64,000 bases of DNA from Acidobacteriota bacterium (GTDB lineage Bacteria > Acidobacteriota > Terriglobia > Terriglobales > Acidobacteriaceae): assembly GCA_021846275.1 (NCBI GenBank), contig JAJZBZ010000003.1, positions 124,001-188,000 on the forward strand. The letters are read 5' to 3'. Under the pieces are notes generated by a model. That model saw only the letters and a list, made by a program, of their open reading frames with translations. It did not search any database and was not told where the DNA came from. The position numbers and the translations under genes are program-made. Of this stretch, positions 1,829-63,354 are shown piece by piece (position 1 is the stretch's first letter; every line of letters starts with the position of its first letter).

Positions 1829-2328
1829 GCGAACTACCTCCGAAAATGAAGTAAGTAAAGGCGTGCGCCTCAAGAACCACAGATCAAGAGACGTGGGCTG
1901 AATCGAAATTTGGAAAGACCGCCGGGAACTGCGGAGAAACTACCCCGAACCACTTGTGGACCGAATCGACTTACGCGAAAAGGAGGTGTGTCTCGGATTT
2001 CGCGTCTGCGATTCGGTGCTGGATGAGCGATCCGGAAGCCGGGGATCCGTGCATGCAAAAAGACCGACGCGCAGGCGCGACGGTCTCAGCAAAGAGAACT
2101 ATGACAGGGAATAGTGCGAATGAAACAGCTATGGTTGGCTTCCATTCTTAAACATAGTTGGAATGAAAAAAAAAATGCAAGCAAAAACTGCGAGGCTATT
2201 ACTTCTGTTTATGACGGGCATGGGAAAACGCGCGGAGTCGTGGGGGCTGGGCACGGCGGAAACAGCCGGGAGGCGACAAAAAAACCTGGGAGATTGGACA
2301 CGGCTTCAGAAACAGCGCGCCGGTTGGC
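1829..2328. other. 500-base gene-free region between TonB receptor and Crp/Fnr gene
   Basis: No convincing protein gene is visible on either strand; open frames here are short and lack codon character. It must hold the promoter of the leftward TonB receptor gene. It contains a strong hairpin terminator (2057-2086, listed separately) and an A-rich stretch at about 2163-2177. The part between the Crp/Fnr stop (2329) and the hairpin could be a long 3' untranslated region or a small leftward RNA. Confidence 0.5.
2057..2086 (-). terminator. Rho-independent terminator, leftward
   Basis: Reading the minus strand, AGACCG pairs with CGGTCT (2061-2066 with 2081-2086), then one A/A mismatch, then CGCG pairs with CGCG around a 4-base loop (2072-2075). 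Five U residues follow (2057-2061). It lies about 240 bases beyond the Crp/Fnr stop codon, unusually far, so it may end that transcript or an unannotated small RNA. Confidence 0.7.
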
Positions 2329-3045
2329 TCAGGCCGTCAGCTTGTCCAGCTCGGCCTCGTTCAGGATCGTCACCCGCGAGCCATGCACGCGAATCCACTG
2401 CTGACGGCGAAACTGGCTGAGCAGCCGCGTGATGGTCTCACGCGAAGTTCCGGCCATGTTTGCGATCTCCTCATGCGTGAGCGCCATGGTGAACTTCATC
2501 TCTGCGTCGCCGCAGCGCGCCGAGCGCGCCCACTCCAGCAGCAACTGCGCCAGCCGTCCTCCCGCCGTGGTTGAGAGTGCCAGCCGCCGCGCGTCGCGAA
2601 AGACAGTTCCGTACTCCAGCGACAACGACTGCGCGGCCTTCATGCTGGCCGGAGCGTGTGTTTCAAGCAGCTTCACAAACTGCTCCCTGCGAATGGTTTT
2701 GATGACGCACGGCTCAATGGTTTCGGCGGTGACCTCATGCGGCGTGTCGGCCAGCGCCGCATTCAGGCCAAGCAGGTCGCCGGGCACGGCGATCTTCAGG
2801 ATCATCGTGCGACCGTCACGCGAGGTGGTCGAGATCTTCACCTGTCCGCTGCACAGCACGAAAACATTCCGCACCGCATCGCCTTCGCTGAAGAGCTTTG
2901 CGCCGGGCGCGTGATTGACCAGTACTCCGATGCGGTCAAACTCTTCCAGCGCCGCATCCGGCAGGTTGCAGAACAATCGTACGTACCGGTGTTCACAGTG
3001 GAGACAATCCTCGGGCTGAGAGTGAAGCTGGGTGAACGGCGTCAT
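2329..3045 (-). CDS. Crp/Fnr-family transcriptional regulator
   Basis: DNA-binding regulator of 238 residues. Residues about 25-140 form the cyclic-nucleotide-binding-like beta roll (GAKLFSEGDAVRNVFVLCSG, PGDLLGLNAAL). Residues about 150-235 form the winged helix, with LTHEEIANMAGTSRETITRLL as helix-turn-helix; the E-T-x-x-R recognition helix resembles that of FNR. Cysteines at 14, 17 and 26 precede the sensor domain and another sits at 113, the same overall arrangement as the four [4Fe-4S] ligands of E. coli FNR (three N-terminal, one internal), though the spacing differs (CX2CX8C). An oxygen or NO sensor is therefore plausible but unproven. C65 is an extra cysteine. It is divergent from the GH3 gene across about 200 bases, which may hold a shared control region; no clear FNR box (TTGAT-N4-ATCAA) was seen there. 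Confidence 0.9.
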   Translation of the reverse strand: MTPFTQLHSQPEDCLHCEHRYVRLFCNLPDAALEEFDRIGVLVNHAPGAKLFSEGDAVRNVFVLCSGQVKISTTSRDGRTMILKIAVPGDLLGLNAALADTPHEVTAETIEPCVIKTIRREQFVKLLETHAPASMKAAQSLSLEYGTVFRDARRLALSTTAGGRLAQLLLEWARSARCGDAEMKFTMALTHEEIANMAGTSRETITRLLSQFRRQQWIRVHGSRVTILNEAELDKLTA

Positions 3046-3249
3046 AGCGTTTTGACCTCACACCTGCGGGGGAGTGACCCGGTCTCATGGGGCAGCGTTA
3101 GTATACCGCCAACTCCGGCTCGCGAAAGCGGATATTTCTGTCGTGTGAGCGGCGGCGCGCCATTCCGACCCGGGCCTGCGCGGCAACCCGTAACAATCGT
3201 TTGTTTCCCCTTGCCACAACGCGCTCCCGCCGTGTACTCTTCCCACGCT

Positions 3250-5814
3250 ATGAAAATCTTCCATTTCCGCTTCGTTTCCCTGTCCAGCCTTCGCACAGCC
3301 GCGCAGGCGCTTGCCACTCTCGGCTTTGCAATCCCACTCTGCGCCATTGCGCCTGCGGCGCAGGCACAACAGAACTGGGGGCCTGCTCCGGACTCGCCAG
3401 CCATTGAGCAGCAGGCGCACGCGATGGTGAGCAAGCTGACGCTGGAGCAGAAGATTCATCTGCTGGGCGGCGTGGACGAAATGTTCACCCACGCGATGCC
3501 GGTGATCGATCTGCCGCGCCTGAAGATGTCCGACGGCCCGCTCGGCGTGCGCTCCTGGGGACCGACGACAGCCTACGCGGGCGGCGCGGCGCTGGCCGCC
3601 ACCTGGGACCCGACCGTGGCGCGCCGAGTGGGCGAGGGACTGGGCCGCGATGCGCGGGCGCGCGGCGTCGATTTCCTGCTTGCGCCGGGCGTGAATATCG
3701 CGCGCTCGCCCGTGAATGGACGCAACTTCGAGTACCTCTCGGAAGACCCTTTTCTGAACGCGCAGATGGACGTGCAGTACATCGAGGGCGTGCAGTCGGA
3801 GGGCGTGAGCGCGACGGTGAAGCACTTTGCCGGAAACAATCAGGAGTATGACCGGCACAACGTCAGCTCCGACATTGATGAGCGGACGTTCCGGGAGCTG
3901 TATCTGCCGCCGTTTGAGGCGGCGGTGAAGACCGCGCACGTGACCGCCGTGATGGACTCCTACAACCTGATGCACGGCGTCCATTCGACGCAGAACTACG
4001 ACCTGAACACGAAGCTGCTGAAGCAGGAGTGGGGCTTCAAGGGCGTGCTGATGTCGGACTGGGACGCGACCTATGACGGCGTGGCGGCGGCCAACAGCGG
4101 ACTCGATCTGGAGATGCCTTCGGCGAAGTTCATGAACGAGCAGACGCTGCTGCCGGCCGTGCGCGCGGGCAAGGTTTCCGAGGCCACCATCGACGACAAG
4201 CTGGTGCGACTGTTTCGCGTGGCGCTGCGCTATGGCTGGATCGGCCCCAACGTGCGCCCGCAGCAGATCGACACGCTGCCGCTCTACTCCGTTCCGGATC
4301 GCGCCATCGCCCTCCAGGGCGCGCGCGAAAGCCTGACCCTGCTCAAGAATGAACAGAATTTTCTGCCGCTCTCTGCGGCGCGCGAGAAGACCATCGCGCT
4401 GATCGGCCCCGATGCCTATCCGGCCGTGCCCGGCGGCGGCGGCTCGTCGCAGGCCACGGCCTTCGATCCGGTCAGCATCCTCACCGGCCTGGCCAATCTT
4501 GCCAGCACCGAGGGCATGCACGTTCTCTACGCGCGCGGGCTGCCCAGTGAGCAGGATATCTTCCGCTCCACGCGCTTCGATGCGCCGGTTCGCGTGGAGC
4601 ACTTTGACAATCACGACTTCAGCGGCTCGCCCTCGTCCGTAACAACGCAGGCGATGGTGGACGATCTGAAGCCGGCGATGTGGGACGTGGTCGATCCGCA
4701 CAAGCGCGGACTGCGCTACACGGCCAGCTACACGGCGAAGACAACGGGCGATTATCTGCTGCTGGCCGGAGCCTCGGGCGAAGACTCCTACACCGTGAGC
4801 GTGGACGGCAAACAGGTGATCGAGCAGCCGCACCGCGAGGGCCAGTATCCGATGTCGGCGACCGTGCATCTGGCGGCGGGCACGCCGGTGACGATTGTCG
4901 CCGACTACATTCCGCGTGCGCCGGGCATCCGCATGGCGCTGGGCCTGCGCGCGATCAGCGATCTGATTCCCGCCGACGCGCTGCGGCTGGCCGCGCACGC
5001 TGACGCAGTCGTGCTTTCGGTCGGCTTCAATCACGACACCGAAAGCGAAGGCTACGACCGCAGCTTCGCACTGCCGTGGGGCCAGGATGCGCTGGTCCGC
5101 GCCGTGGCCGCTGCCAACCCGCACACGGCCGTGGTGCTGACGGCCGGCGGCGCGGTGGATACACGCGACTGGCTGGACAAGGTGCCCGCATTCATCCAGA
5201 GCTACTACGCCGGGCAGGAGGGTGGAACGGCGATTGCCGAGGCGCTGCTGGGTCGCATCAATCCCGAAGGCAAGCTGCCGGTGACCTTTGACCGCAGCTT
5301 CGAAGACGACCCGACCTTCGCGAATTACTACGCGAAAAAAGAGGCCGACGGCATCCTCCATGTGCATTACAACGAGAAGCTGATGGTTGGCTATCGCTAC
5401 TGGACGACGACGGGCAGGCATCCGCTCTATCCGTTTGGATATGGCCTCAGCTACACGAGCTTCGCGTTCTCTCATCTCCAGGTGAATCCCACATTCAGGG
5501 CGGGCGACGCCGTCGCCGTCAGCTTTGACGTGACCAACACCGGCAAGGTGGCCGGCGCGGAAGTGGCGCAGCTTTACGTCTCCGAACCGAACGCTCCCGT
5601 CACGCGACCGGAGCGCGAGCTGAAGGGGTTTGAGAAGGTTCGCCTCGCGCCGGGCGCGACACAGCACGTGACGCTCACGCTCAGCCGACGCTCGTTCTCC
5701 TGGTGGGATGTGACCACGCACAACTGGAAGATGGACGATGGAAAGTTCATTCTCCACGTCGGTGACTCGTCGGAATCGACGCCGCTGGAGGCGACCATCA
5801 CGGCGACAAACTGA
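3250..5814 (+). CDS. secreted GH3 beta-glucosidase with PA14 insert
   Basis: Glycoside hydrolase family 3 enzyme, 854 residues, probably releasing terminal beta-linked glucose or xylose from oligosaccharides in the periplasm. A signal peptide (residues 1 to about 39, ending APAAQAQ) precedes the (beta/alpha)8 domain. The nucleophile is D270 in VLMSDWD. The second alpha/beta domain is interrupted by a PA14 carbohydrate-binding insert (about 440-570). TESEGYDRSF (about 597-606) carries the probable acid/base glutamate. A fibronectin-III-like C-terminus (about 755-850, GAEVAQLYVSEP) is standard for the family. The frame is open upstream of 3250, but the ATG at 3250 directly precedes the signal peptide. 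Substrate cannot be decided from sequence. It converges with the phosphotransacylase gene; a hairpin lies between them. Confidence 0.95.
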   Translation: MKIFHFRFVSLSSLRTAAQALATLGFAIPLCAIAPAAQAQQNWGPAPDSPAIEQQAHAMVSKLTLEQKIHLLGGVDEMFTHAMPVIDLPRLKMSDGPLGVRSWGPTTAYAGGAALAATWDPTVARRVGEGLGRDARARGVDFLLAPGVNIARSPVNGRNFEYLSEDPFLNAQMDVQYIEGVQSEGVSATVKHFAGNNQEYDRHNVSSDIDERTFRELYLPPFEAAVKTAHVTAVMDSYNLMHGVHSTQNYDLNTKLLKQEWGFKGVLMSDWDATYDGVAAANSGLDLEMPSAKFMNEQTLLPAVRAGKVSEATIDDKLVRLFRVALRYGWIGPNVRPQQIDTLPLYSVPDRAIALQGARESLTLLKNEQNFLPLSAAREKTIALIGPDAYPAVPGGGGSSQATAFDPVSILTGLANLASTEGMHVLYARGLPSEQDIFRSTRFDAPVRVEHFDNHDFSGSPSSVTTQAMVDDLKPAMWDVVDPHKRGLRYTASYTAKTTGDYLLLAGASGEDSYTVSVDGKQVIEQPHREGQYPMSATVHLAAGTPVTIVADYIPRAPGIRMALGLRAISDLIPADALRLAAHADAVVLSVGFNHDTESEGYDRSFALPWGQDALVRAVAAANPHTAVVLTAGGAVDTRDWLDKVPAFIQSYYAGQEGGTAIAEALLGRINPEGKLPVTFDRSFEDDPTFANYYAKKEADGILHVHYNEKLMVGYRYWTTTGRHPLYPFGYGLSYTSFAFSHLQVNPTFRAGDAVAVSFDVTNTGKVAGAEVAQLYVSEPNAPVTRPERELKGFEKVRLAPGATQHVTLTLSRRSFSWWDVTTHNWKMDDGKFILHVGDSSESTPLEATITATN

Positions 5815-5845
5815 GCCGCGCATCGCCGGAAATAATCAGAAAGCA

Positions 5846-5890
5846 CAACGCCCGCCCGCCTGCATCTTTCTGCGAGACCGGCGGGCGTTG
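5846..5890. terminator. Candidate bidirectional hairpin terminator
   Basis: A perfect 11-bp inverted repeat (5846-5856 CAACGCCCGCC with 5880-5890 GGCGGGCGTTG) around a 23-base loop, placed between two convergent genes. It lacks a long U tract, so it could act as a weak terminator or transcript stabiliser for either side. Confidence 0.5.
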
Positions 5891-5920
5891 CCGCGTCTGC
5901 GCGCGACCGCCGCGCCTGGC

Positions 5921-6904
5921 TCAGCCCTGCGCCGTTTTCTGCGCCTCTTCGAGCAGCGCCGCCACGGCGCAGGAGGTCAGCCGCGTGGCCGCGGAGTCCG
6001 CGCGGCTGGTCAGGATGACGGGGACGCGCGCGCCGAGCACGATGCCCGCCAGTTGCGCGCCGCCCAGATACTCCAGTTGCTTGGCCAGCATGTTGCCCGA
6101 CTCCAGATCAGGCACGACGAGAATATCGGCCCGGCCCGCGACCGGCGACTTCAACCCCTTGATCTCGGCTGCCTTTTCGCTCACCGCCGTGTCAAAGGCA
6201 AGCGGCCCGTCGAGCACGCCGCCGGTGATCTGTTTGCGATCGGCCATCTTGCAGAGCGCGGCCGCGTCCAGCGTCGAGGCAATCTTCGGATTCACGGTTT
6301 CGACTGCGGACAGCAGCGCAACCTTCGGCTCCGGAATGCCCAGCGCATGCGCCAGGTCAATCGCGTTCTGCACGATGTGAATTTTGTCTTCGAGGTCCGG
6401 CTCGATGTTGATGGCCGCGTCCGTGATGAGCAGCGTGCGGTCATAGGCCGGCGTGTCCATCACGAAGACGTGACTGATGCGCTTGCCCGTGCGCAGGCCG
6501 GTGTCGCGCGCCATGGCCACGCGCATCAGCTCGTCGGTGTGCAGACTGCCCTTCATCATCGCCTGCGCTTTTCCGCTGCGGCAGAGATCAACGCTGGCCT
6601 GCGCGGCTGCGGCCTCGGTTGCGGCCTCGACCATCGGCAGCGCCTCGACGCTCACACCCATCCCTGCAGCCAGCGCGCGGATGGCTGCACCGTCGCCGAC
6701 CAGCACCGGCTCGATCAGCCCGGCTTCGGCTGCCTCCAGCGCGCCGCCCAGCGCCACATCGGAGAGCGGCCAGCAGACGGCGGTCGTCAGCGCGGGCAGC
6801 GCGCGGCAGCGATCCAGAAATTTGTGAAAGACGTGATAATCCTGCGGATGCCCAACCAGCGGATTCACAGTCACGGACTCGGCCAGCGTTGCCAGATCAC
6901 TCAT
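5921..6904 (-). CDS. phosphate acetyl/butyryltransferase family protein
   Basis: Enzyme of the PTA_PTB family, which interconverts acyl-CoA and acyl phosphate in the cytoplasm. 327 residues, the normal size for phosphate butyryltransferase-type enzymes. Recognisable stretches are MMKGSLHTDELMRVAM, VFVMDTPAYDRTLLITDAAI, GPLAFDTAVS and ADILVVPDLESGNMLAKQL. The ATG at 6904 has GGAGGGG just upstream; the frame continues further but without protein-like sequence. No acetate or butyrate kinase is next to it, so acyl preference and physiological direction stay open. Confidence 0.88.
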   Translation of the reverse strand: MSDLATLAESVTVNPLVGHPQDYHVFHKFLDRCRALPALTTAVCWPLSDVALGGALEAAEAGLIEPVLVGDGAAIRALAAGMGVSVEALPMVEAATEAAAAQASVDLCRSGKAQAMMKGSLHTDELMRVAMARDTGLRTGKRISHVFVMDTPAYDRTLLITDAAINIEPDLEDKIHIVQNAIDLAHALGIPEPKVALLSAVETVNPKIASTLDAAALCKMADRKQITGGVLDGPLAFDTAVSEKAAEIKGLKSPVAGRADILVVPDLESGNMLAKQLEYLGGAQLAGIVLGARVPVILTSRADSAATRLTSCAVAALLEEAQKTAQG

Positions 6905-7386
6905 CGAATTCCCCTCCGGATCGAATGCTCGCCCGATCCCATGCCTTCCGGCTACCGTGCCTTCCGGCCGGAGCTTCCGGACGCGCAAGCCGGATCGCCC
7001 ACAATCCGACTCTGCTTCCATCATCCAACGTTTTGCCGGTTCCGCGCCTGTGTTCGCGGTCACACCCGTCTCAAAACCAGTCCCCTGACCCACCTCTCGA
7101 ACCGGAACCGGGCAGGCCGAATCGCGAAGAACCGGAGTCTCCCGCAAAGCTCAAATCGCCGGACAACTGCGGAAAAGCGGCCTCAGTCCCTCTCATCCTG
7201 CGCATGGCGGAAAAATCGGTGCTACAGTTTCAGTGCATGAAGACTTTTTTCCGCAATCCGGGTTCTATCCGTTGCAGGACGCGTCCTATCGGATGAACGT
7301 AGGTTGCGTGCGCTGATCCATCGACAAAGACGCCAAGAAGCGGATACCCGGATCCGGCCACGCATCGCAGAAAGGAAGCAAGACCC
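6905..7386. other. 482-base gene-free region between divergent genes
   Basis: Lies between the leftward phosphotransacylase gene and the rightward VWA gene and must contain both promoters. I see no credible ORF, repeat or RNA structure in it. Confidence 0.4.
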
Positions 7387-8358
7387 ATGAAAGTTCGACT
7401 CCTCACTCTTCCCATCATTGCAGCAGTCATGGCCACCGCCGCGCTGGCCGCTGTCGGAATCCCCGCGCAGGCGCAGCAGGACACCAACAGCACCGAGGGC
7501 CGCGTGGTCATTACCGTGATGCCCAAGCATGACAAGGCTCCGACTCCGGCCATCTCCGCGTCTGACATCAAGCTGGCCGTGGACGGCAAACCAGCCCAGG
7601 TCGCGTCGCTCGTGCAGTCACAGTCGCCCAAGGCCCACATTGAGTTCGTCGTGCTCATCGACGACACGGCGCGCAGTAGCCTCGGCATTCAGTTCAACGA
7701 CATCAAGAGCTTCATCCAGGGCCTGCCGCCGAATGCGCGCGTCGCGCTTGGCTACATGGAATACGGCGGCGTGCAAATGGCCATACCGCTCACGATGGAC
7801 CGCCAAGCCGTGCTCAAAAGCCTGCGCCTGACGGCAGGGCCATCGTACTCCAACGGCAGCCCGTACTTCTGTCTTTCGGACCTCGCCAAGCACTGGCCCT
7901 CGGCGGACATGACCGCGCAGCGCGAGGTGCTCATGATCACCGACGGCATCGATGACTACGAGCGCCGATTCGACCCCGAAGACCCGTATGTGCAGACGGC
8001 CATACAGGACGCGACGCAGGCGCACATCGTCGTCTACACCCTCTACTGGCACGGTCGCGGCGACCCGGGAAGCACCTCCTATGTGGGCTACGGCGGACAG
8101 AACCTGCTGGTCGAGATCAGCAGCGCGACGGGCGGATTCTCCTACTGGGAGGGATTCGGCAATCCGGTCTCGTTTTATCCCTTCCTCGACGACCTGAACA
8201 AGCGCCTGCGCAACCAGTACGAGATGACCTTCATGACAGCCTACAGCGGCAAGGACGCAATGGCCTCGCTGCGCTTCCACCTGGACAAGAACGACGCCAA
8301 GGCGACGGCCCCGCAGCAGGTCTATGTCTTCCATCCGAACGGCGCGCCGGTGGACTGA
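7387..8358 (+). CDS. secreted VWFA-related domain protein
   Basis: A 323-residue protein with a signal peptide (1 to about 29, ending IPAQAQ) and a von Willebrand factor A-like domain (about 85-290: IEFVVLIDDTARSSLG, ALGYMEYGGVQMA, REVLMITDGIDDYE). The usual metal site DxSxS is altered here (DDTARSS), so metal binding may be changed or lost. Such short VWFA proteins are frequent in Acidobacteriota and their function is unknown; a role in protein interaction at the envelope is only inferred. GAAAGGAAG upstream of the ATG serves as ribosome-binding site, and a strong terminator follows, so it is probably a single-gene transcript. Confidence 0.8.
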   Translation: MKVRLLTLPIIAAVMATAALAAVGIPAQAQQDTNSTEGRVVITVMPKHDKAPTPAISASDIKLAVDGKPAQVASLVQSQSPKAHIEFVVLIDDTARSSLGIQFNDIKSFIQGLPPNARVALGYMEYGGVQMAIPLTMDRQAVLKSLRLTAGPSYSNGSPYFCLSDLAKHWPSADMTAQREVLMITDGIDDYERRFDPEDPYVQTAIQDATQAHIVVYTLYWHGRGDPGSTSYVGYGGQNLLVEISSATGGFSYWEGFGNPVSFYPFLDDLNKRLRNQYEMTFMTAYSGKDAMASLRFHLDKNDAKATAPQQVYVFHPNGAPVD

Positions 8359-8399
8359 GCACGGCAGCCGGTTCAGTTTCTCATCGACTCAGAAGTACG

Positions 8400-8433
8400 C
8401 GGGCAGCGCCAGCAGCGCTGCCCGGTTTTTTTT
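8400..8433 (+). terminator. Rho-independent terminator after VWFA gene
   Basis: A perfect 10-bp stem (8400-8409 CGGGCAGCGC with 8415-8424 GCGCTGCCCG), a 5-base loop and eight T residues at 8426-8433. A textbook intrinsic terminator for the rightward VWFA transcript; it isolates that gene from xylulokinase. Confidence 0.92.
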
Positions 8434-8552
8434 GCGCGGAAGCTGACACGCTTTCTGGTTTTGCCGCGCCGGGCATCGCCTGCTATCCTCACTCTGCGTC
8501 GGATTTCCTCGACAGAAAACCGATTTATATCCCGTACGCGAAGAGGTGGGCG

Positions 8553-10028
8553 ATGTGGTTTCTCGGCATGGATATCGGCACCGGCGGCACACGCGCCGTC
8601 CTCACGGATGAACTGGGCGCAATCGTCAGCTCCGCCTCCGCCGAGCATGCTCCGTTTCGCACGCCTCAGCCCGGCTGGGCCGAGCAGGATCCCGAGGACT
8701 GGTGGCGCGCAGCGGTCGAAGCGATTCGCGGCGCTCTGGCCGCAGCTCCCGCTCCACAGCAGCCCATCGGCGGCGTCGGCCTCACCGGACAGATGCACGG
8801 TGCCGTGCTGCTCGACGCCTCGGGCCGCGTGCTGCGCCCCTCGCTCATCTGGTGCGACACACGCACCCAGCCGGAGTGCGACTGGCTCCACGAGCAGATC
8901 GGCTACGAGCGCCTGATCGAGCTGACCTGCAACCCGGCTCTGCCCAACTTCACGCTGACCAAACTGCTCTGGGTAAAGAAGCACGAGCCGGAGATCTTCG
9001 CCCGCACGGCCCATATTCTCTGCCCCAAGGATTACGTCCGCTTCCGGCTGACCGGCAGCTACGCCATCGACGTGCAGGAGGCCAGCGGCACGCTGCTGCT
9101 GGACGTGACGCACCGCCGCTGGTCGGCTGAGGTCGCCGCCGCGGCAGGCATTCCCGCCGCGTGGCTGCCGGAGGTCTACGAATCGACCGACGTCTGCGCC
9201 GCCATCTCCACGGAAGCGGCCAGCGCCACCGGCCTCGCTGCCGGAACACCCGTCGTCGCCGGCGCCGGCGACCAGGGCGCGGGAGCTGTCGGCATGGGCA
9301 TCCTCACGCCCGGCTCGGTCTCGGCCACCATCGGCACCTCCGGCGTCGTCTTCGCCGCCACGGCCAGCCCGGTGCGCGAACCGCGCGGACGCCTGCACAC
9401 CTTCTGCCACGCCGTGCCCGGCCGCTGGCACGTCATGGGCGTCACGCAGTCAGCGGGACTCAGCCTGCGCTGGCTGCGCGAGACCTTCTTCCCTGGCCAG
9501 GATTACGATGCGCTCAGCGCGGCAGCGAACGTGATTGCACCGGGCAGCGACGGGCTGATGTGGGCACCCTACCTGCTCGGCGAGCGCACGCCGCACCTTG
9601 ACCCGGAGGTCCGCGCGGCCTTCGCCGGCATTCACTCCAGCCACTCGGCGGCCCATTTCACGCGCGCCGTGCTGGAGGGCGTCGCCTACTCGCTTCAGGA
9701 CACCTTCACGCTCTTCGCCGAGCTGGGCATTCCCGTCACCGCCATACGCCTCGGCGGCGGCGGAGCGCGCGGTCCGCTCTGGCGCAGAATTCAGGCCGCG
9801 GTCTACGGCCAGCCCGTCGAAACCCTCACCGCCGAAGAAGGCGGAGCCTTCGGCTGCGCGCTCATGGCCGGCGTCGGAGCCGGACACTGGGCCAATCTCG
9901 ACGAAGCCTGCCAGTCGGCCATCACCGTGGCCGAACGCATCACGCCGGACGCAGCCGAGGTCACGGCCTACAGCACCGGCTACGCAGGCTGGCGCAAACT
10001 CTATCCCGCGCTGGCCACCCTGCGCTGA
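8553..10028 (+). CDS. xylB: xylulokinase
   Basis: Phosphorylates D-xylulose to xylulose 5-phosphate with ATP, feeding the pentose phosphate pathway. 491 residues, normal for the FGGY kinase family. The N-terminal nucleotide motif is FLGMDIGTGGTRAVL, the substrate region includes VGLTGQMHGAVLLD and LIWCDTRTQ, and the probable catalytic aspartate is D240 in GAGDQGAGAVG. The C-terminal actin-like half has GGGGARGPLWRRIQA. The ATG at 8553 follows GAGGTGGG. No xylose isomerase is visible here. Ribulokinase and transaldolase elsewhere in the window fit the same pathway. Confidence 0.93.
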   Translation: MWFLGMDIGTGGTRAVLTDELGAIVSSASAEHAPFRTPQPGWAEQDPEDWWRAAVEAIRGALAAAPAPQQPIGGVGLTGQMHGAVLLDASGRVLRPSLIWCDTRTQPECDWLHEQIGYERLIELTCNPALPNFTLTKLLWVKKHEPEIFARTAHILCPKDYVRFRLTGSYAIDVQEASGTLLLDVTHRRWSAEVAAAAGIPAAWLPEVYESTDVCAAISTEAASATGLAAGTPVVAGAGDQGAGAVGMGILTPGSVSATIGTSGVVFAATASPVREPRGRLHTFCHAVPGRWHVMGVTQSAGLSLRWLRETFFPGQDYDALSAAANVIAPGSDGLMWAPYLLGERTPHLDPEVRAAFAGIHSSHSAAHFTRAVLEGVAYSLQDTFTLFAELGIPVTAIRLGGGGARGPLWRRIQAAVYGQPVETLTAEEGGAFGCALMAGVGAGHWANLDEACQSAITVAERITPDAAEVTAYSTGYAGWRKLYPALATLR

Positions 10029-11558: not shown

Positions 11559-12573
11559 ATGCGGGCGCGGGCGCGGATGCGAGCGCGGCGGCGTTGCCCG
11601 GGTCTGCCGAGGTCGGAGTTTCGAGCAGGTCGATGAGGGTTTTTGCCGGGAGTTGCGCGCGGAGGACCACGCGGTCGCGGCGGGTGGAAAGCTGCGCGGA
11701 GGCGAGCAACTGTTCGAGGCCGCGATTGGCCGGAGTGGGCGCGAGGCTGGCCGTGGCGCCGCGAGCGAGCGCGAACAGCAGGCCGAGCGTGGCCATCTGG
11801 CTGGTGGCGGCCTGGTCGGACGGCGCGATCTCCTCGACCCTCAGGCGGAGCGAGCCGACCCAGCGCAGGCTGGCCAGGAAAGTGGTCTCCGGCGGGAGCG
11901 GCAGCGCGAGGCCGAAGATGTGAATCGCGCCGCTTTCGGTGAGCGGCAGGCCGATCTGGCCCATGCCCCAGGCGAAGGACAGGAGCGGAATCTCCGCCCA
12001 GTGGCGGGCGAGGAGCGTCGAGCCGACGAAGGGCAGCGCGGCGGTGCGGTGGCGGTCAAGGATGGAGTGAATCTGCTCGGGCGTGGGCGTGTTCGAGATG
12101 GCGATGGTGTCGTAGCCGATCTGGGCGATGCGGACGGTGCGTCCGTCGCTGGGCAGGCTGTAGATGATCTGGCCGACGTAGTCTTCGCGCGTGGCGGCGT
12201 GGGCCGCCAGCCAGGTGGCGATGCGGCGGCCGTCGAGCCGACCGACGAGGACCATCGAGTAAGCAACCGGCCCGTTGGGTCCGCGCGGGTCAGCCATGCG
12301 GTGGAGCGCGATGGCGGCCTGGTCAAGATCCCGCTCCCAGACGAAGCCGGTCGCGTCAAGGAACTGCTGGTAATCGGGCGCGGGCGTGACGGCGGCCATG
12401 CGCGGATGGACGAGCGCGCGCAGGGGGCGCAGGTTGACGTAGAGGATGCCGTCGGACTCCGGCAGCAGACGCGCGGCCTCGGGCGGGGACTTGAAGCGCA
12501 GGAAGACGGCGACGGCGATGAAGCCGACGACGGCTGCGATGATCCAGAGCAATCGGCGCGTGCGGCGAAGCAT
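11524..12573 (-). CDS. membrane-anchored hypothetical protein
   Basis: No family recognised. 349 residues: a basic N-terminus and one membrane segment (about 9-25, LLWIIAAVVGFIAVAVFL), then an extracytoplasmic region (LLPESDGILYVNLRPLRALV, VLVGRLDGRRIATWLA) and a low-complexity Ala/Pro tail. Regular codon use and high GC match surrounding genes, so it is probably real. It converges on the GH5 gene with a 35-base tail-to-tail overlap, so the two transcripts must be antisense at their ends. Confidence 0.7.
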   Translation of the reverse strand: MLRRTRRLLWIIAAVVGFIAVAVFLRFKSPPEAARLLPESDGILYVNLRPLRALVHPRMAAVTPAPDYQQFLDATGFVWERDLDQAAIALHRMADPRGPNGPVAYSMVLVGRLDGRRIATWLAAHAATREDYVGQIIYSLPSDGRTVRIAQIGYDTIAISNTPTPEQIHSILDRHRTAALPFVGSTLLARHWAEIPLLSFAWGMGQIGLPLTESGAIHIFGLALPLPPETTFLASLRWVGSLRLRVEEIAPSDQAATSQMATLGLLFALARGATASLAPTPANRGLEQLLASAQLSTRRDRVVLRAQLPAKTLIDLLETPTSADPGNAAALASAPAPASTASSAPAPPR

Positions 12574-12653
12574 GGTTCCGAGAATACCGTATCACCCCGG
12601 CACGAGTAGGCAAGATGAATTTTGTAATGCCTTGATCGCCCCGCTAATTTACT

Positions 12654-13748
12654 TCATGCCACTTGGAATCGAAAGTCGTGCTCGATGCCAACTTTCGACG
12701 ATCCTCGGGAAAAAACTCTCTTTTGTCCATTTTTGATATCACTCTGTTGGTGCTCACAAAGCCAAGACTTGCGGCCCGTTGAATTAAGGGAGGTAAGTAG
12801 GCCATGCTCCAGTTCATCTGCTTGGAGGCGAGTTCCTCCAATACGCACGACTACATAAGCTGAGTCCTGAAGCAACGGCATAATCCCCGCCCACGCTTCG
12901 CTCAGAAACAGCCAGTAGTGTTCGACAATACGGTGACGGTCATCTTTTCCTTGCCCGGAAATCGGCGTCATTGGGCCACCTAAGAACCAAAGCCGCAGCC
13001 ACTGATCTTCGTGATAGTCCGTGATGTCCAGATACGGCGGAGAGGTGATGACTAGCTTGACCTTCTCCTTATACGCGCGAAACATACTGCTGGCCTTCCG
13101 CGCATCGCCCTCGACTACGCGACCTTTGATCAATGGAAGAGGCGACTGATAGCGATACGCCGCCGCCGCCGTGAGAATTGAGAACACGTCACGTTTCGGC
13201 GGTAGGCAGGCATTCTTCTTCCACCAGCGCACCGAATATGCTGGCTTTGTGCTAATCGTTCTCGGCATCCGATTGCTAAAGCACGCTTCGGTGCGATGGC
13301 TTTCACCGTGTAAGCAGCCTAGGGCTAGCGCAGCTATAAAGCAATCCACGCGGGATTCCCGCCAGTCCAGTCTTTTCCTCAGAAAGAGAATTTGCTGTAG
13401 CGTTTCCTGATGGAAACAAGCCATGAAAAATTCATCCTTCACTTCGGCTGCTCTCGACGAGAATTGTGCGCTCTTCTTCCGCAGATCGCTGATGCGCGCC
13501 AAAACCGCCTTCAAAGCCGGTGGATCAGCCTTCGCCATCGAAAGACATGCTGCAACCGGGTTTGTGTCACAACCAATAGCCTTTCGGCCATTGACGAGGC
13601 TTTCGAATACTGTTGTCCCCCGACCCGAAAACGGGTCAAGCACAATGTCATTCCGCTTTGACCAAGCCAGCACGTTCCGCCGGACGAACGCTTCCGGGAA
13701 CATGGCGAAGTACGGACATATCGAGTGAAATCTGTGTCGCTCGATCAT
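12654..13748 (-). CDS. DNA amino-methyltransferase (N4-cytosine or N6-adenine)
   Basis: S-adenosylmethionine-dependent modification of an exocyclic amino group in DNA, 364 residues. The SAM-binding motif I is VLDPFSGRGTT (about 36-46) with IGCDTNPVA following; the catalytic motif IV is VITSPPYLDITDY in the second half. The order I then a long (about 180-residue) insert then IV suggests an alpha-like layout, with target recognition in the insert; SPPY is often seen in N4-cytosine enzymes but does not decide the base. It is the last gene of a minus-strand cassette: its ATG overlaps the upstream gene's stop (ATGA), so translation is probably coupled. GC is visibly lower than in neighbours, which suggests acquisition by transfer. 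Confidence 0.85.
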   Translation of the reverse strand: MIERHRFHSICPYFAMFPEAFVRRNVLAWSKRNDIVLDPFSGRGTTVFESLVNGRKAIGCDTNPVAACLSMAKADPPALKAVLARISDLRKKSAQFSSRAAEVKDEFFMACFHQETLQQILFLRKRLDWRESRVDCFIAALALGCLHGESHRTEACFSNRMPRTISTKPAYSVRWWKKNACLPPKRDVFSILTAAAAYRYQSPLPLIKGRVVEGDARKASSMFRAYKEKVKLVITSPPYLDITDYHEDQWLRLWFLGGPMTPISGQGKDDRHRIVEHYWLFLSEAWAGIMPLLQDSAYVVVRIGGTRLQADELEHGLLTSLNSTGRKSWLCEHQQSDIKNGQKRVFSRGSSKVGIEHDFRFQVA

Positions 13749-14752
13749 GCAGTCTGAAGCCTCTTGGAATAATTGTTAACCCATCGCGCGATTTTGGGGA
13801 GTTCCTTGTGACGTTCAAAGTAAGTTTCTCCCGCCTCCACCACGAGCAAGCCCAGGGAGAAATTTCTGGCTACCCGATCCCTGTAGAACACGTCCCCGAA
13901 CTTGTAGTTAAGGCTGGCAACGTAATCGGTCAGGACCTCCTGATAGGGCGTGCTATCGTCCGGCAGCTCGGGTTCAAGATTGAACGGAATGAACATGGCA
14001 TCCGTAGCCTGCGATCCCGGCGCGCGTTCAAACCAGAAGTCATGGAAATGCTTCCGGTCCGTCGTCACGCTCTTCCCCTCCCAATTCGATCCGCTAGCCA
14101 CTTGCCCGATCAGATAGTGCGTCCCCGGGAGTCTATCCGCCTGCCGCCTCCATGCGATTACGTCGATGCCATTGTCCTTGACCGCCTTCGAGGCACCGGG
14201 CCTGGGTGTCTTATGTGGTTTCCCATCACCGAATTCCTTGTAAACGGCTTTCAGCGCCGCCAAGAAATCCTTCCCGCTCGGACGTGGCCATCCGAATGAC
14301 ACGGCCGGACCACCCACATACCCGCCAGCGGCGACCGTCGAGCATGCCTGAAACAGATCGCGAACCCTGTTATCGATCTTCGGCGCGTCTGCCTTCTTGA
14401 TGATCGTGTGGTCGGCAACCTGTGTGAGATATAGGCAGAATAGATATACGATCCCCACGGGATTTAGCGGTGTCACGAAGCACAGGGCGTTGCCCTTTGG
14501 GTCGATGCGGAACGGATATCCGTCCCCAACGCTCGCTTGCCTGCGCTCGATCTCTTCTTGCGCAGCCTGCACCAACCGGTCTTCTTCTGCGTCCTGGTCT
14601 GCGATGTTGTCGTCTTGTTCGTTCTCCGTTAGCGTGGCCGCTGAAATCAGCGTTCCGAAGCCCACGCGCGCATCAGGGGATGAAATGGCCTTCAGCTCCA
14701 GCCAATCTGCAAACTTCGCCCTGTGATCTGACTCATCGGGGACTGCAAGCAC
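13745..14752 (-). CDS. putative PD-(D/E)XK-type nuclease of the ParB-methyltransferase cassette
   Basis: No family recognised with certainty. 335 residues. The segment KDNGIDVIAWRRQ followed by HYLIGQVASGSNWEGKS (about residues 190-230) looks like the D ... (E/Q)xK core of restriction-endonuclease-fold proteins, although the lysine after GQV is replaced and may come from GK further on. This reading is inference. Start GTG at 14752 lies 4 bases after the ParB-like gene; the stop overlaps the methyltransferase start. Placement between a ParB-like gene and a DNA methyltransferase supports a restriction or defence role. Low GC compared with flanking housekeeping genes. Confidence 0.6.
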   Translation of the reverse strand: MLAVPDESDHRAKFADWLELKAISSPDARVGFGTLISAATLTENEQDDNIADQDAEEDRLVQAAQEEIERRQASVGDGYPFRIDPKGNALCFVTPLNPVGIVYLFCLYLTQVADHTIIKKADAPKIDNRVRDLFQACSTVAAGGYVGGPAVSFGWPRPSGKDFLAALKAVYKEFGDGKPHKTPRPGASKAVKDNGIDVIAWRRQADRLPGTHYLIGQVASGSNWEGKSVTTDRKHFHDFWFERAPGSQATDAMFIPFNLEPELPDDSTPYQEVLTDYVASLNYKFGDVFYRDRVARNFSLGLLVVEAGETYFERHKELPKIARWVNNYSKRLQTA

Positions 14753-14756
14753 GGGC

Positions 14757-15887
14757 CTACTTCTTGCCTTTCGGTGAAGTCTTCACCATTGATTTCATGG
14801 TGGTGTATATCTGCTTGCTTGTATCCGCAAGTTCCTTCCCAATTTCGAGCAAGGTGGAATCTTCGGAATCATATCCTGTGATCTGCGACAGAGCGGTTTC
14901 AGCCTCCTGCTTCGCGTTCACGAGCGCGCTTTCGAACCGCGCGCCTTTCGATTCTATGGAGCTGTGTGCCTCAGCTAGATTGTTGCGGGCCAGCATCATC
15001 ACGCGAGCACGAGGATGCGATAGTACTGCAGCCAGATTCTTAATGTCCGGATTCTGGGATGTAATGACGGGCTTGATATCGTCGTCTTTTGAACCGTAGA
15101 GCCAGACCAGAAGGGTTCTCAGGTTCTCTAGGTACTTTTTCGGCACCGGGTTCAACTGCGGTTCGTCCACACGCCAGTCTTCAGGAAGGCCCAGAAAATT
15201 CCTATACCCAGAACGTGTCAGGGCAGTATAGAGGTGCGAGAAAGCAAACTTCCTGCCAGGATACCGGTCCGCGATTTCGAAGATGCCCTCATCCTTCGCC
15301 TGATCGAGAACGAACATGCCACTCACGAGCCGAGCGACCGTCGCGTGATTGTCGCCGAGCCGACTGGCGATTTTGTCAAGACTGACGCCCTTTTCCTTCA
15401 TGTACCAATCGGCTGCAAATCGCGCTTTTGCCAACGCGTCCCACCGATGCGGCCCGTTGATGTGCTTGAAACCAATATAGTCCCGAGCCTGTTCCTTGCT
15501 CGTTACGGCATAGACCGAAACTTCCTTCAAGGTCGCTTTGTTTGCCGCGCTTACTTCAGGAACCGTGACACCTGTACCTTTAGCAATCGCAGGATTCTGT
15601 AAAATGCGGATTGCGGCTAGACGCCGATTGCCCTCCAGCACTCGCCATTTATTGCCTACCCTCTGACCGATCAGCGGCTCGATATCAAGATAGCCATTCG
15701 CAGCAATAGACTGAACAACTTCGGATAAATCAGATGTGTCTGCCAACGCCCGTATGATTTGTTCGTCTGTTGGGTTCGCTATGCCCTCCTCAATCAAGCG
15801 CGGGTTCGCAGGATCGAATTCGAGATATTCGGTAGGGACTTTATCGACGGTTTTGGGAGCAATTTTAGGTGCGCTCATTGCTTTCAT
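14757..15887 (-). CDS. ParB/Srx-domain protein heading the methyltransferase cassette
   Basis: ParB/RepB/Spo0J-type N-terminal domain: YLEFDPANPR (NPR box) and PLIGQRVGNKWRVLEGNRRLAAI, where GNRR corresponds to the GERR nucleotide-binding motif of ParB CTPases. A helix-turn-helix follows (LDKIASRLGDNHATVARLV), then a less conserved C-terminal half with a helical tail. No ParA gene adjoins it, so chromosome partitioning is unlikely; a DNA-bound switch or sensor for the two downstream enzymes is an inference. The ATG at 15887 (MKAMSAPK) is chosen; a TTG at 15938 and an ATG at 15878 are alternatives, and none has a good ribosome-binding site. Low GC. Confidence 0.75.
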   Translation of the reverse strand: MKAMSAPKIAPKTVDKVPTEYLEFDPANPRLIEEGIANPTDEQIIRALADTSDLSEVVQSIAANGYLDIEPLIGQRVGNKWRVLEGNRRLAAIRILQNPAIAKGTGVTVPEVSAANKATLKEVSVYAVTSKEQARDYIGFKHINGPHRWDALAKARFAADWYMKEKGVSLDKIASRLGDNHATVARLVSGMFVLDQAKDEGIFEIADRYPGRKFAFSHLYTALTRSGYRNFLGLPEDWRVDEPQLNPVPKKYLENLRTLLVWLYGSKDDDIKPVITSQNPDIKNLAAVLSHPRARVMMLARNNLAEAHSSIESKGARFESALVNAKQEAETALSQITGYDSEDSTLLEIGKELADTSKQIYTTMKSMVKTSPKGKK

Positions 15888-15981
15888 GGTTGACGCACGG
15901 GTTGGGTGCAACAGGTGCCAATCATGCGACAGCTTCAACTAACGATTACCCACATTAACACGCTGAACCAGCATTTCGCAT

Positions 15982-16878
15982 CTAGCCGTTGTGATGCTTC
16001 TTCACGAGGTCGCCCCAGTCGAAGTAGCGGCCGAGGATGCCTTTGACGATGAGGTGGTCGGTCGAGGCCGTTGCGCCCCAGCCGGCGCCGATGTTGATCT
16101 CCCACTTCGGCGAGACGAAGAGATTGACGACGGGGAAGAACTGCTGCTGCTGGTTGTGGAGTGAGACGAAGTTGCCGAATTCGCCGAAGTAGCCGTAGTA
16201 CTCGATGCCGAAGTTGTAATACTTGTTGGGCTGGTAGGTGAGCGTGGCGGCAGGGTTGAACGTGACGCCCTGAGGCGAGACATCGCGATAGTAATAGTTG
16301 ATCTGCTGCTGGGTCTGGCCGGGCGGCAGGGTGGTGGGGTGTATGCCCCAGATGAGCGTGGTGTTGACGGACCAGTACCACTTGCCGATGGTCTGGTCGA
16401 CGATGGGCATGATCTGCCAGGACCAGGAGGGATTGGCGTAGGCGGCGCGGGCGTAGCCGATCTCATTGGAGACGCTGACGCCGACGGGCCAGTGCCAGCT
16501 CTCCGGCACGCGCACGCGCGGGCGGATGTGGTCGCCAACCCACTGGACGCCGGTGCCGTTTTCTTCTTCGGTGAAGATGTAGAAGCCAAGCTCGGACCAG
16601 TCGTTGAGGCCCTCGGTCAGCTCAATGGTCTCGTGCTCCTGGCCCTGTGTGGGCAACTGTCCGTACTGCGTGGTGGTGGTGCCTTCGACGGTGTAGTTGC
16701 TGTGCAGTTCGGTGAGCAGCGTCTTCGGTGCCATCGTCTCCGACGGATAGACCTGGATCTCGTAGTTATCCTGCGCGCGCGCCGAGACGCAGGTTGCCAG
16801 TGCGCCGAGCGCCATCATGGTCAACACCAGCCCGCGTATGCGCCTCATGCGACGCGGCACTCCTCTGCTTCCGCTCAT
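15982..16878 (-). CDS. hypothetical outer-membrane beta-barrel-like protein
   Basis: 298 residues with a signal peptide (RIRGLVLTMMALGALATCVSARA) and repeated short amphipathic aromatic strands (YYNFGIEYYGYFGEF, WEINIGAGWGATAST, WSWQIMPIVDQT), the pattern of small outer-membrane barrels. No named family recognised. The ATG at 16878 has GAGGG six bases upstream. It lies just beyond the ParB cassette but shares the high GC of the chromosome, so it is not part of that cassette. Confidence 0.7.
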   Translation of the reverse strand: MSGSRGVPRRMRRIRGLVLTMMALGALATCVSARAQDNYEIQVYPSETMAPKTLLTELHSNYTVEGTTTTQYGQLPTQGQEHETIELTEGLNDWSELGFYIFTEEENGTGVQWVGDHIRPRVRVPESWHWPVGVSVSNEIGYARAAYANPSWSWQIMPIVDQTIGKWYWSVNTTLIWGIHPTTLPPGQTQQQINYYYRDVSPQGVTFNPAATLTYQPNKYYNFGIEYYGYFGEFGNFVSLHNQQQQFFPVVNLFVSPKWEINIGAGWGATASTDHLIVKGILGRYFDWGDLVKKHHNG

Positions 16879-29995: not shown

Positions 29996-30607
29996 TCAGG
30001 GAGCAATTCCGACAAGAACCAGCGGAACTGCTGGAACGCCGCGTCCTTCCCGGATGAGGTTATACAGCTCGCCCTCGTAATAGGCGACGCCGGACGACAT
30101 GTTTTCCTGAAGCTCTTTCATGGGCAGAATTTCAATGCCCACATCGATCACGTCGCCGACAAAGAAGGCCATGTGTTTGACGAAAAGATCGTAGGCGACA
30201 AAGGAGTATTTGCCGAACTGGACCTCGACGGCCACGCGCTCTTTCACAAAGTCCGTCTGGTTGTACGAGTAGATGGGCCGCAGCCCCGCAGCTTCAATCG
30301 CGCTCTTCTGCTGTTCAGCGGAAAGGTGCATCGTACGGCGGATCAGTTGCGCGTCCGAGGTCACCCAATATGCCGTGCGCTGTTCGTTCCATCTGTGCTC
30401 GCGAAAACGCTGGCTGAAGCTGCTGTTCATCGCGATGGGAGAAAAAAGCTGCTTGCCTTTCGTGCGAATCTCCTTTGAGATTTTCGTTCGACAGGATGCC
30501 GCGTCAATGTCGGCAATGACCTGTTGAATCTGCGTCCAGAGCGCAGGCTTGTGAACAAGCAGATACTCAAGTCCGTTCAGATGGGAGTACTTCTCGACAA
30601 TCCTCAC
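29996..30607 (-). CDS. type II restriction endonuclease, BstYI/BglII family
   Basis: 203 residues, the same length as BstYI, with near-identical blocks known to me from that enzyme: SHLNGLEYLLVH, SYNQTDFVKERVAVEVQFGK, YSFVAYDLFVKHMAFFVGD, YYEGELYNLIREGRGVPA. Expected to cut double-stranded DNA at a GATC-centred site, most likely R^GATCY. The core is the D ... EVQ active-site variant of this family (V-E-V-Q). Start is GTG at 30607, overlapping the methyltransferase stop as GTGA, so expression is coupled and follows the methylase. The pair sits between murJ and a hypothetical gene; its GC is lower than theirs. Confidence 0.93.
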   Translation of the reverse strand: MRIVEKYSHLNGLEYLLVHKPALWTQIQQVIADIDAASCRTKISKEIRTKGKQLFSPIAMNSSFSQRFREHRWNEQRTAYWVTSDAQLIRRTMHLSAEQQKSAIEAAGLRPIYSYNQTDFVKERVAVEVQFGKYSFVAYDLFVKHMAFFVGDVIDVGIEILPMKELQENMSSGVAYYEGELYNLIREGRGVPAVPLVLVGIAP

Positions 30608-63220: not shown

Positions 63221-63354
63221 CCGGCCGCCCTCCATCGCCCGCACACGACCGACAGTGGAGGCGGCTCTGTTCGTGCGCCCGAAACTCCGCCCGGATGCGC
63301 AGTCGGCGTATCATTCGTTTCGAGGACATAGTTGCGGCGGAGACGATTTACACG

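What the first reader, a model, noticed from the sequence alone, without database searches (positions are those of the whole stretch)
12654..15887. ParB-like protein, putative nuclease and DNA methyltransferase in a tight low-GC operon
Three minus-strand genes with a 4-base gap and a 4-base ATGA overlap: a ParB-domain protein (NPR and GNRR boxes), a 335-residue protein with a D...GQV...GK segment like a PD-(D/E)XK core, and an amino-methyltransferase (DPFSGRGTT, TSPPY). No ParA, no classical specificity subunit and no known restriction family member is present. The lower GC and placement between ordinary chromosomal genes suggest a mobile defence or epigenetic cassette whose switch may be a ParB-type CTPase. 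I do not know a described system with this gene order.
Basis: partly seen in the sequence, partly recalled or inferred. Interest (0 to 1): 0.82.

Follow-up and report, generated by a model that had tools for sequence, protein, structure and literature searches.

The report
ParB-nuclease restriction-modification gene cassette
Three neighbouring genes form a small, mobile set that recurs in many bacteria and phages and looks like an undescribed kind of DNA self/non-self system: an enzyme that marks the cell's own DNA, a ParB-like DNA-binding protein, and a nuclease that probably cuts unmarked foreign DNA.

Summary
Window 12654-15887 (minus strand) holds a tight three-gene operon at 52-57% GC in a 64% GC window. 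The nuclease guess holds up: the middle protein models confidently (pLDDT 91.9) as a winged helix plus a PD-(D/E)XK-like fold, nearest MspJI, though fold scores are modest. D197 is invariant in 135 of 135 sequences, Q217 in 134, K227 in 132; of three sequences with the textbook Q-x-K lysine, two lack K227. The first protein has a ParB/KorB CTPase fold with a DNA-binding domain.

The pair is a real unit: adjacent or fused in 153 of 160 fetched loci, with a DNA methyltransferase within 3.5 kb of 140 of those 153. The methyltransferase class is exchangeable (C5, D12, N6/N4). A P2-like E. coli phage carries it between portal and gpA genes, a known defence hotspot.

The closest named system, PD-lambda-5, shares the ParB module and sometimes the methyltransferase, not the middle protein; six of 80 genome loci hold both effectors beside one methyltransferase found. 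Most likely this is restriction-modification with a ParB-type loader and separate nuclease. Function is inferred, not shown. New variant of a known kind.

The parts
14757..15887 (-). Gene 1: ParB-like protein, 376 aa. ParB/Srx NTPase-fold domain (about 13-147; NPR 28-30, EGNRR 85-89), KorB/Spo0J-like DNA-binding domain (about 133-295), helical C-terminus
   Evidence: PHROG_3694 1.7e-81; AlphaFold2 pLDDT 91.9; Foldseek M. xanthus ParB 5.1e-6; VIA KorB Z 11.0 and ParB-CTPgammaS Z 9.9; D25 N28 P29 R30 E85 G86 N87 R88 R89 H142 W149 invariant in 49 of 49
13745..14752 (-). Gene 2: predicted nuclease, 335 aa, GTG start. Winged helix (about 6-120) plus PD-(D/E)XK-like fold (about 95-330); candidate active site D197, Q217, K227
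   Evidence: PHROG_14650 8.3e-37 and PHROG_3984 7.3e-7, both of unknown function; AlphaFold2 pLDDT 91.9, pTM 0.92; MspJI best in Foldseek (E 0.026) and VIA (Z 5.9) and in profile search (E 0.013); conservation
12654..13748 (-). Gene 3: amino-methyltransferase (N6-adenine or N4-cytosine), 364 aa, motif order I (DPFSGRGTT) then IV (TSPPY)
   Evidence: Pfam N6_N4_Mtase 1.5e-19; permuted match to 2zie; 43-52% identity to the methyltransferases of L008, L009, L011
14753..14756 (-). 4-base gap between genes 1 and 2; genes 2 and 3 overlap by ATGA at 13745-13748: one transcriptional unit likely
   Evidence: in relatives the ParB and middle genes overlap in 107 of 152 adjacent pairs (48 of 73 genome, 59 of 79 viral)

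Best explanation
A mobile restriction-modification system. The methyltransferase marks the host's own DNA. The ParB-like protein loads on DNA through its HTH region under nucleotide control (probably CTP, possibly another NTP) and acts as sensor and loader; the winged-helix/PD-(D/E)XK protein is the DNA-cutting effector it brings in or licenses. Methylation at the target site would block loading or cutting, so unmarked phage or plasmid DNA is destroyed. Supported by sequence or model: the gene set, its recurrence, the folds, the conserved residues, exchangeable methyltransferases, carriage at a phage defence hotspot. Inferred: DNA cleavage, blocking by methylation, NTP use, physical complex, defence.
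For: Nuclease fold and residues; one of 61 relatives has a weak Pfam Mrr_cat match (0.019). Lysine exchange: of three rows with canonical Q-x-K, two lack K227 and one has both; 131 of the other 132 keep K227. ParB fold and DNA-binding domain. Linkage: pair adjacent or fused in 153 of 160 loci, methyltransferase within 3.5 kb of 140 of 153; a 707-aa ParB-middle fusion in L176 followed by a D12 methyltransferase. Methyltransferase class changes at least 8 times on the middle-protein tree and 5 on the ParB tree. One methyltransferase found beside two effectors, ParB-middle and a PD-lambda-5_A-like gene, in 6 of 80 genome loci. Wphi and 12474III methyltransferases are 97.8% identical while ParB is 33% and middle 27%. 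Position between portal and gpA genes in a P2-like phage, a hotspot with tested defence systems (PMC9122126, passages). PD-lambda-5, which shares the ParB module and has a methyltransferase, defends E. coli against phages (PMC9519451, section 7).
Against: No experiment. The nuclease fold matches are modest: Foldseek best E 0.026 with no hit at 1e-3, VIA Z 5.9, under the Z 8 below which the tool says a match may be only a common arrangement; MspJI profile match E 0.013. The textbook Q-x-K lysine is Ala in the window protein, and the K227 role is inferred from few sequences at alignment-sensitive positions. The P-motif Glu of canonical ParB is N87 here (GNRR for GERR), so nucleotide hydrolysis may be altered or lost. 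Methyltransferase exchange is hard to square with an effector that reads a fixed site, unless specificity co-evolves. 13 of 153 pairs have no methyltransferase found; seven of these end within about 550 bases of a contig end, six do not. L018, L021 and the second pair of L017 also have none of the three classes within 3 kb. MspJI is modification-dependent (recalled), the opposite logic.
Confidence: 0.66

Rival explanations
1. Abortive-infection variant: the ParB-nuclease pair is a suicide effector held off by methylation or by the methyltransferase itself and released when infection disturbs that mark, killing the cell.
For: PD-lambda-5, the nearest named system, is described as a compacted 'RM+Abi' system (PMC9519451, passage). 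Six of 80 genome loci hold both kinds of effector beside one methyltransferase found.
Against: A PD-(D/E)XK nuclease beside a methyltransferase needs no extra trigger to explain; nothing here shows sensing of infection.
Confidence: 0.15
2. Prophage or plasmid maintenance: the ParB-like protein partitions or stabilises a mobile element and the methyltransferase protects it from host restriction; the middle protein is an accessory DNA-binding partner.
For: ParB fold with DNA-binding domain; carriers include phages and plasmids. P2-like phages are said to carry a 'putative plasmid partitioning system' at the same hotspot (PMC9122126, passage).
Against: No match of the ParA-type family tested on the window's contig, and no ParA annotated inside the three phage cassettes with annotation; the cassette is also found in contigs of bacterial genomes; nuclease-type residues of the middle protein are conserved.
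Confidence: 0.08
3. Modification-dependent (Type IV-like) attack: the pair cuts DNA bearing foreign modification, as MspJI and GmrSD do, and the methyltransferase is an unrelated companion.
For: Best fold and profile matches are to MspJI; GmrSD combines a ParB/Srx-fold NTPase with a nuclease (PMC4619093, passages).
Against: A methyltransferase of one of three classes lies within 3.5 kb of 140 of 153 pairs, unlike stand-alone Type IV enzymes; Pfam recognised no modified-base reader domain in the 61 middle proteins scanned (E up to 0.1).
Confidence: 0.08
4. Epigenetic regulator: methylation and ParB-like binding switch host genes and the nuclease fold is catalytically dead.
For: Canonical Q-x-K lysine is Ala in the window protein.
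Against: D197, Q217 and K227 are conserved in 135, 134 and 132 of 135; relatives lie in many unrelated hosts.
Confidence: 0.03

Closest known systems
PD-lambda-5 (Vassallo 2022; PADLOC PD-Lambda-5_A/_B)
   Same: ParB-like N-terminal module (P0001 to PD-Lambda-5_A 8.1e-17 over residues 15-160) and a DNA methyltransferase partner; a methyltransferase beside one relative of the window pair scores as PD-Lambda-5_B (L010 3.6e-75); phage carriage.
   Different: PD-Lambda-5_A models are mostly 428-613 aa and the C-terminal part of members shows no similarity to the window's middle protein (hhalign 0.1%; few sequences). PD-Lambda-5_B-like L010 is D12 class, the window's is N6_N4. The window has a separate winged-helix/PD-(D/E)XK gene with no PADLOC match.
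Phage Wphi gp98-gp96-Mth and P2-like relatives (not named as a system in the sources seen)
   Same: Same gene set: ParB-like PHROG_3694, middle PHROG_3984, methyltransferase.
   Different: Methyltransferase is C5-cytosine and convergent; the window's is amino-class and in one operon.
GmrSD Type IV restriction enzymes
   Same: ParB/Srx-fold NTPase joined to a nuclease (PMC4619093, passages).
   Different: GmrS is DUF262 with DGQQR, the nuclease is HNH (same passages); here EGNRR, PD-(D/E)XK-like fold, and a methyltransferase partner.
MspJI family restriction enzymes
   Same: Nearest solved nuclease fold and D...Q core.
   Different: MspJI carries its own modified-base reader (recalled); here a winged helix precedes the nuclease fold, a ParB-like partner and a methyltransferase lie beside it, and the lysine appears moved.
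ParB/KorB/Noc CTPase clamps
   Same: NTPase fold and DNA-binding domain order.
   Different: No match of the ParA-type family tested on the contig; NPR/EGNRR motifs, Asn in place of the GERR Glu.

Membership tests
PD-lambda-5 | ParB-like module in protein A | tested here: met
   P0001 matches PD-Lambda-5_A models over residues 15-160, best 8.1e-17
PD-lambda-5 | Protein A full length with the PD-lambda-5_A C-terminal part | tested here: not met
   In all PD-Lambda-5_A rows shown the best stretch ends by residue 202 of P0001, whereas the second ParB genes of L145 and L124 match end to end; none of 7 middle proteins scanned has a PADLOC match
PD-lambda-5 | Partner methyltransferase of PD-Lambda-5_B type | tested here: inconclusive
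   PD-Lambda-5_B is not among the 25 families shown of 62 matched by P0003; P0003 is N6_N4_Mtase, PD-Lambda-5_B-like L010 is MethyltransfD12
Type II-like restriction-modification | DNA methyltransferase beside the nuclease | tested here: met
Type II-like restriction-modification | Restriction endonuclease fold with conserved active site | tested here: inconclusive
   PD-(D/E)XK enzymes lead the list but at Z 5.9 and below, Foldseek E 0.026; residues conserved
Type II-like restriction-modification | Cleavage blocked by the partner's methylation at a shared site | not testable with these tools
   needs biochemistry
GmrSD Type IV | DUF262 domain and HNH/DUF1524 nuclease | tested here: not met
   neither appears in the Pfam scan of the three proteins at E up to 1
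ParABS partition | ParA partner gene | tested here: not met
   no PF01656 match on the window's contig among 8 in the genome (other ParA families not searched); of six flanking genes, three have other Pfam domains and three none
ParB/Srx NTPase fold | Fold | tested here: met
   Foldseek 5.1e-6; 29 hits at or below 1e-3, all ParB, Noc, Spo0J or KorB; VIA Z 11.0 and 9.9 for the first two rows
ParB/Srx NTPase fold | CTP binding and hydrolysis | not testable with these tools
   P-motif arginines R88, R89 invariant in 49 of 49; GERR Glu is Asn

The most novel reading that the evidence does not exclude
An unrecognised, widespread class of restriction-modification in which a ParB-type NTP clamp is the DNA loader: a constant ParB-plus-nuclease arm is paired with interchangeable methyltransferases of three chemistries, and the ParB module itself takes interchangeable effectors (separate PD-(D/E)XK nuclease here, the PD-lambda-5_A C-terminal domain elsewhere), sometimes two effectors under one mark. 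As far as I recall it would be the first restriction-modification system loaded by a CTP-type clamp, and part of what is annotated as ParB 'partition' genes in P2-like prophages would be defence.
Probability: 0.4. Interest if true: 0.85.

Novelty: new variant of a known kind. Interest (0 to 1): 0.72.

Why it matters
It joins two live topics: ParB-fold NTP switches outside chromosome segregation, and modular phage defence. The set can be studied in laboratory E. coli: Wphi is a phage of E. coli W ATCC 9637 (record host) and its three genes occur at 99% identity or more in 103 of 5426 complete E. coli genomes. Near-identical methyltransferases with very different ParB-nuclease pairs give a natural experiment on how a restriction arm keeps its match to a mark while diverging. 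In the RefSeq rows shown the genes are annotated 'ParB N-terminal domain-containing protein', 'hypothetical protein' and 'DNA cytosine methyltransferase', and none of 7 middle proteins scanned matches PADLOC 2.0.0, so a catalogue based on it would overlook the nuclease.

Tried and rejected
Fusion idea: that PD-lambda-5_A is simply the ParB and middle proteins joined. Rejected: its C-terminal part does not resemble the middle protein (hhalign probability 0.1%; a weak test, since few sequences stand on the PD-lambda-5 side). By eye that part looks helical and HEPN-like; Pfam did not confirm it. PDC-M38A (715 aa in PADLOC) might have been a ParB-middle fusion; it matches only the ParB part even of the real fusion L176, so not.

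Led nowhere: tblastn of the middle protein in phages (none); the search for related loci with the single middle protein in viral and genome collections (none); Pfam, NCBIfam and PDB sequence searches of the single middle protein (nothing above chance); viral-structure library (best E 0.047, an Mrr-like protein); more PD-lambda-5_A relatives in viral contigs (one and none); promoter and terminator scan (no more than shuffles); direct repeats at the edges (none) and tRNA in the window (none), so no insertion mechanism was found. No simple empty site: flanks are found in congeners but apart (82 kb in G303, about 5 kb and on opposite strands in G299). LCMV endonuclease and other non-restriction nucleases also appear among the VIA rows.

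Literature: ten paper searches were made; one search concerned MspJI, the other nine bore on this set. Judged by titles and abstract starts, none listed a paper on this three-gene set, but the library holds open-licence papers only, and no REBASE or HHpred was available.

Counting limits: the 160 loci are the best 80 of 156 viral and best 80 of 384 genome relatives of the ParB-like protein, so the rates hold for the near family. The viral profile was built with phage records (Wphi, 12474III, D14A, AS1, ValB1MD-2 among others), and some viral loci repeat these or each other; over the viral loci and the earlier ones together there were 82 distinct middle sequences, of which 77 had a methyltransferase within 3 kb. 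One search (1 kb, E 1e-10) gave lower methyltransferase counts than (3.5 kb, E 1e-8): 16 of 73 adjacent genome pairs without one. Genome loci are mostly MAG contigs, so hosts may be misbinned. The tree is 'quick', with weak forks and five long branches; no shuffled control for the class changes was printed. One PD-lambda-5_A-like seed (L133) contains a masked stretch.
Full report
What is there. The window (G000:C11:124001-188000 of a 3.3 Mb genome) holds three minus-strand genes at 15887-12654 with a 4-base gap and a 4-base ATGA overlap. GC is 0.52, 0.569 and 0.53 against 0.644 for the window. Six flanking genes scanned are two FGGY kinases, a cellulase and three without a Pfam match.

A mobile unit. 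The closest relative found, L113 from an Acidobacteriales MAG, matches at DNA level (69%) over window 15887-12656, the coding unit, with no match outside. Between window and L113 the proteins are 79%, 65% and 81% identical; synonymous sites are saturated (pS 0.78-0.85) while nonsynonymous ones are not (pN 0.13-0.23), so all three genes are under purifying selection. In 61 genomes searched by DNA with window 12000-16800 (the own one and 60 relatives), 35 including the own one match; every listed match in a relative lies in the flanks (up to about 12600 or from about 15975) and none in the insert; where both flanks lie on one contig of a relative (G303, G299), they are not adjacent. In a phylum sample, 5 of 297 genomes including the own one have the middle gene.

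First protein. Pfam ParB_N is sub-threshold, but PHROG_3694 covers residues 9-368 at 1.7e-81, and the AlphaFold2 model (pLDDT 91.9, pTM 0.85) matches ParB-nucleotide structures at Foldseek E 5.1e-6. VIA-align gives KorB Z 11.0 over 197 residues (4.9 A) and M. xanthus ParB with CTPgammaS Z 9.9 over 95 residues at 2.2 A and 28% identity; KorB's DNA-binding domain alone aligns to residues 133-291 at Z 5.3. N28 P29 R30 and E85 G86 N87 R88 R89 are invariant in 49 of 49 sequences. The Glu of GERR in M. xanthus ParB is Asn here (alignment). A survey of this fold found binders of CTP, ATP and GTP and found that mutating the P-motif Arg abolishes binding (PMC12704722, abstract and passages). So nucleotide use is plausible and its kind is open.

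Middle protein. Single-sequence family searches give only PHROGs of unknown function. A 61-sequence alignment gives a confident model (pLDDT 91.9, pTM 0.92). The profile's best PDB sequence match is MspJI (E 0.013), aligned over GDGGVDF...GQAK. Foldseek's best is also MspJI (E 0.026, none at 1e-3). VIA-align lists MspJI (5.9), FokI (5.7), Nt.BspD6I (5.7), NgoMIV (5.3), BsmI (5.2), EcoT38I (5.0), AspBHI (4.9) on ranges that start at 62-128 and end at 298-330, and winged helices (FOXN1 5.0, CapW 4.7) over about 6-120. Each score alone is middling; the agreement of three methods on MspJI and on the PD-(D/E)XK fold is the argument. Across 135 sequences D193 and D197 are invariant, Q217 holds in 134 and K227 in 132. 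The textbook Q-x-K lysine position is A in 91, G in 40, K in 3 and I in 1. Of the three with K there, L026 and L058 have lost K227 and L029 has both; of the other 132, L040 alone lacks K227 (L040 and the divergent L031 may be misaligned there). This pattern (Fisher p about 0.001, not corrected for relatedness) suggests that the catalytic lysine moved.

Third protein. An amino-methyltransferase (Pfam N6_N4_Mtase 1.5e-19) with motif I before motif IV, permuted relative to 2zie.

Recurrence. In the first six loci found with the middle protein, the ParB-like gene is next to it in 6 of 6. ParB-profile scans of viral contigs (best 80 of 156 relatives) and of bacterial genomes (best 80 of 384) gave 160 loci. 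The middle gene is adjacent in 79 of 80 viral loci, and adjacent in 73 or fused in 1 of 80 genome loci. Without it are L078 and L114, both at contig ends, and L118, L148, L161, L170, L172. L176 is a single 707-aa protein with ParB at 14-358 and middle at 393-704. Methyltransferases within 3.5 kb: viral 66 C5, 7 D12, 4 N6/N4, 2 none (both at contig ends); genome 34 D12, 29 N6/N4, 11 none, five of these near contig ends. Record titles name Acidobacteria, Actinobacteria, Chloroflexi, Cyanobacteria, several classes of Proteobacteria and others, mostly MAGs.

Modularity. On a tree of 80 middle proteins (75 labelled) the methyltransferase class changes at least 8 times, on the ParB tree at least 5; for instance L009 (N6/N4) and L010 (D12) are sisters with starred support 98. 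In P2-like phages Wphi and 12474III the methyltransferases are 97.8% identical but the ParB proteins 33% and the middle proteins 27%; in E. coli the two types match 103 and 36 of 5426 genomes over at least 80% of the query, and a third type 48 (overlaps and genomic positions not examined). Conversely, in 6 of 80 genome loci a PD-lambda-5_A-like gene lies near the pair; in L124, L133 and L145 the order is ParB, middle, PD-lambda-5_A-like, D12 methyltransferase in one direction, in L178 the last two are convergent with the pair, L184 and L177 are looser. L145's genes score as full-length PD-Lambda-5_A (4.2e-156) and PD-Lambda-5_B (8.1e-120). Thus one mark may serve two ParB-based effectors.

Setting. 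In phage 12474III the set lies between portal and replication gene A, and in Wphi near the genome end, two small genes away from gpA. The interval between gpA and the portal gene is the P2 hotspot in which several tested systems defend (PMC9122126, passages; PMC9519451, passages). [quoted passage not shown]

How it most likely works. The methyltransferase marks self. The ParB-like protein, a nucleotide-gated DNA-binding clamp by homology, loads on unmarked sites; the winged-helix nuclease is its partner and cuts. Fusion and tight overlap argue for a complex; a methyltransferase beside nine in ten pairs argues that the pair is dangerous without the mark. None of these functional steps is shown here. 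Rival readings are abortive infection, prophage maintenance, modification-dependent attack and gene regulation, ranked in the fields above.

Verdict. It is not PD-lambda-5 (the C-terminal part of its protein A is missing), not GmrSD, not ParABS as far as tested; it works most like a restriction-modification system with a ParB-type loader, and is best filed as a new variant next to PD-lambda-5. I found no paper on this set in the searches listed under Tried and rejected.

Noticed in passing
L017 (MT835579.1) 754-9633: A human faecal phage contig carries two ParB-middle pairs, convergent, beside a gene that looks Vsr-like by eye, a C5 methyltransferase and a Z1-domain gene.
   Followed up: partly
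L021 (NZ_CP147997.1) 1-7803: Neorhizobium plasmid: DUF262, Z1, DUF4420 PD-(D/E)XK, ParB-like, middle and an HNH-like gene in a row, with none of the three methyltransferase classes found: perhaps a larger defence cluster.
   Followed up: partly
L012 4871-9086: A distant relative has a Wphi-like C5 methyltransferase convergent with the middle gene plus a second C5 methyltransferase and a Vsr gene.
   Followed up: partly
P2-like hotspot between gpA and gpQ (literature): Rousset 2022 mentions a 'putative plasmid partitioning system' in about a fourth of P2-like phages (passage); part of it might be this set read as partition genes because of the ParB domain. Untested.
   Followed up: no
L118, L148, L161, L170, L172: ParB-like genes of this family without a recognisable middle gene in genome contigs; the downstream genes look unrelated.
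   Followed up: partly
window 12000-12600 and 15975-16784: The two flanks of the cassette are not neighbours in congeners where both are placed on one contig (82 kb apart in G303, about 5 kb in G299), so the cassette seems to mark a rearrangement junction.
   Followed up: partly
window 30001-31000 and 63001-64000: Two further GC dips (0.557 each) outside the cassette, in a window that is otherwise about 60-71% GC; not examined.
   Followed up: no
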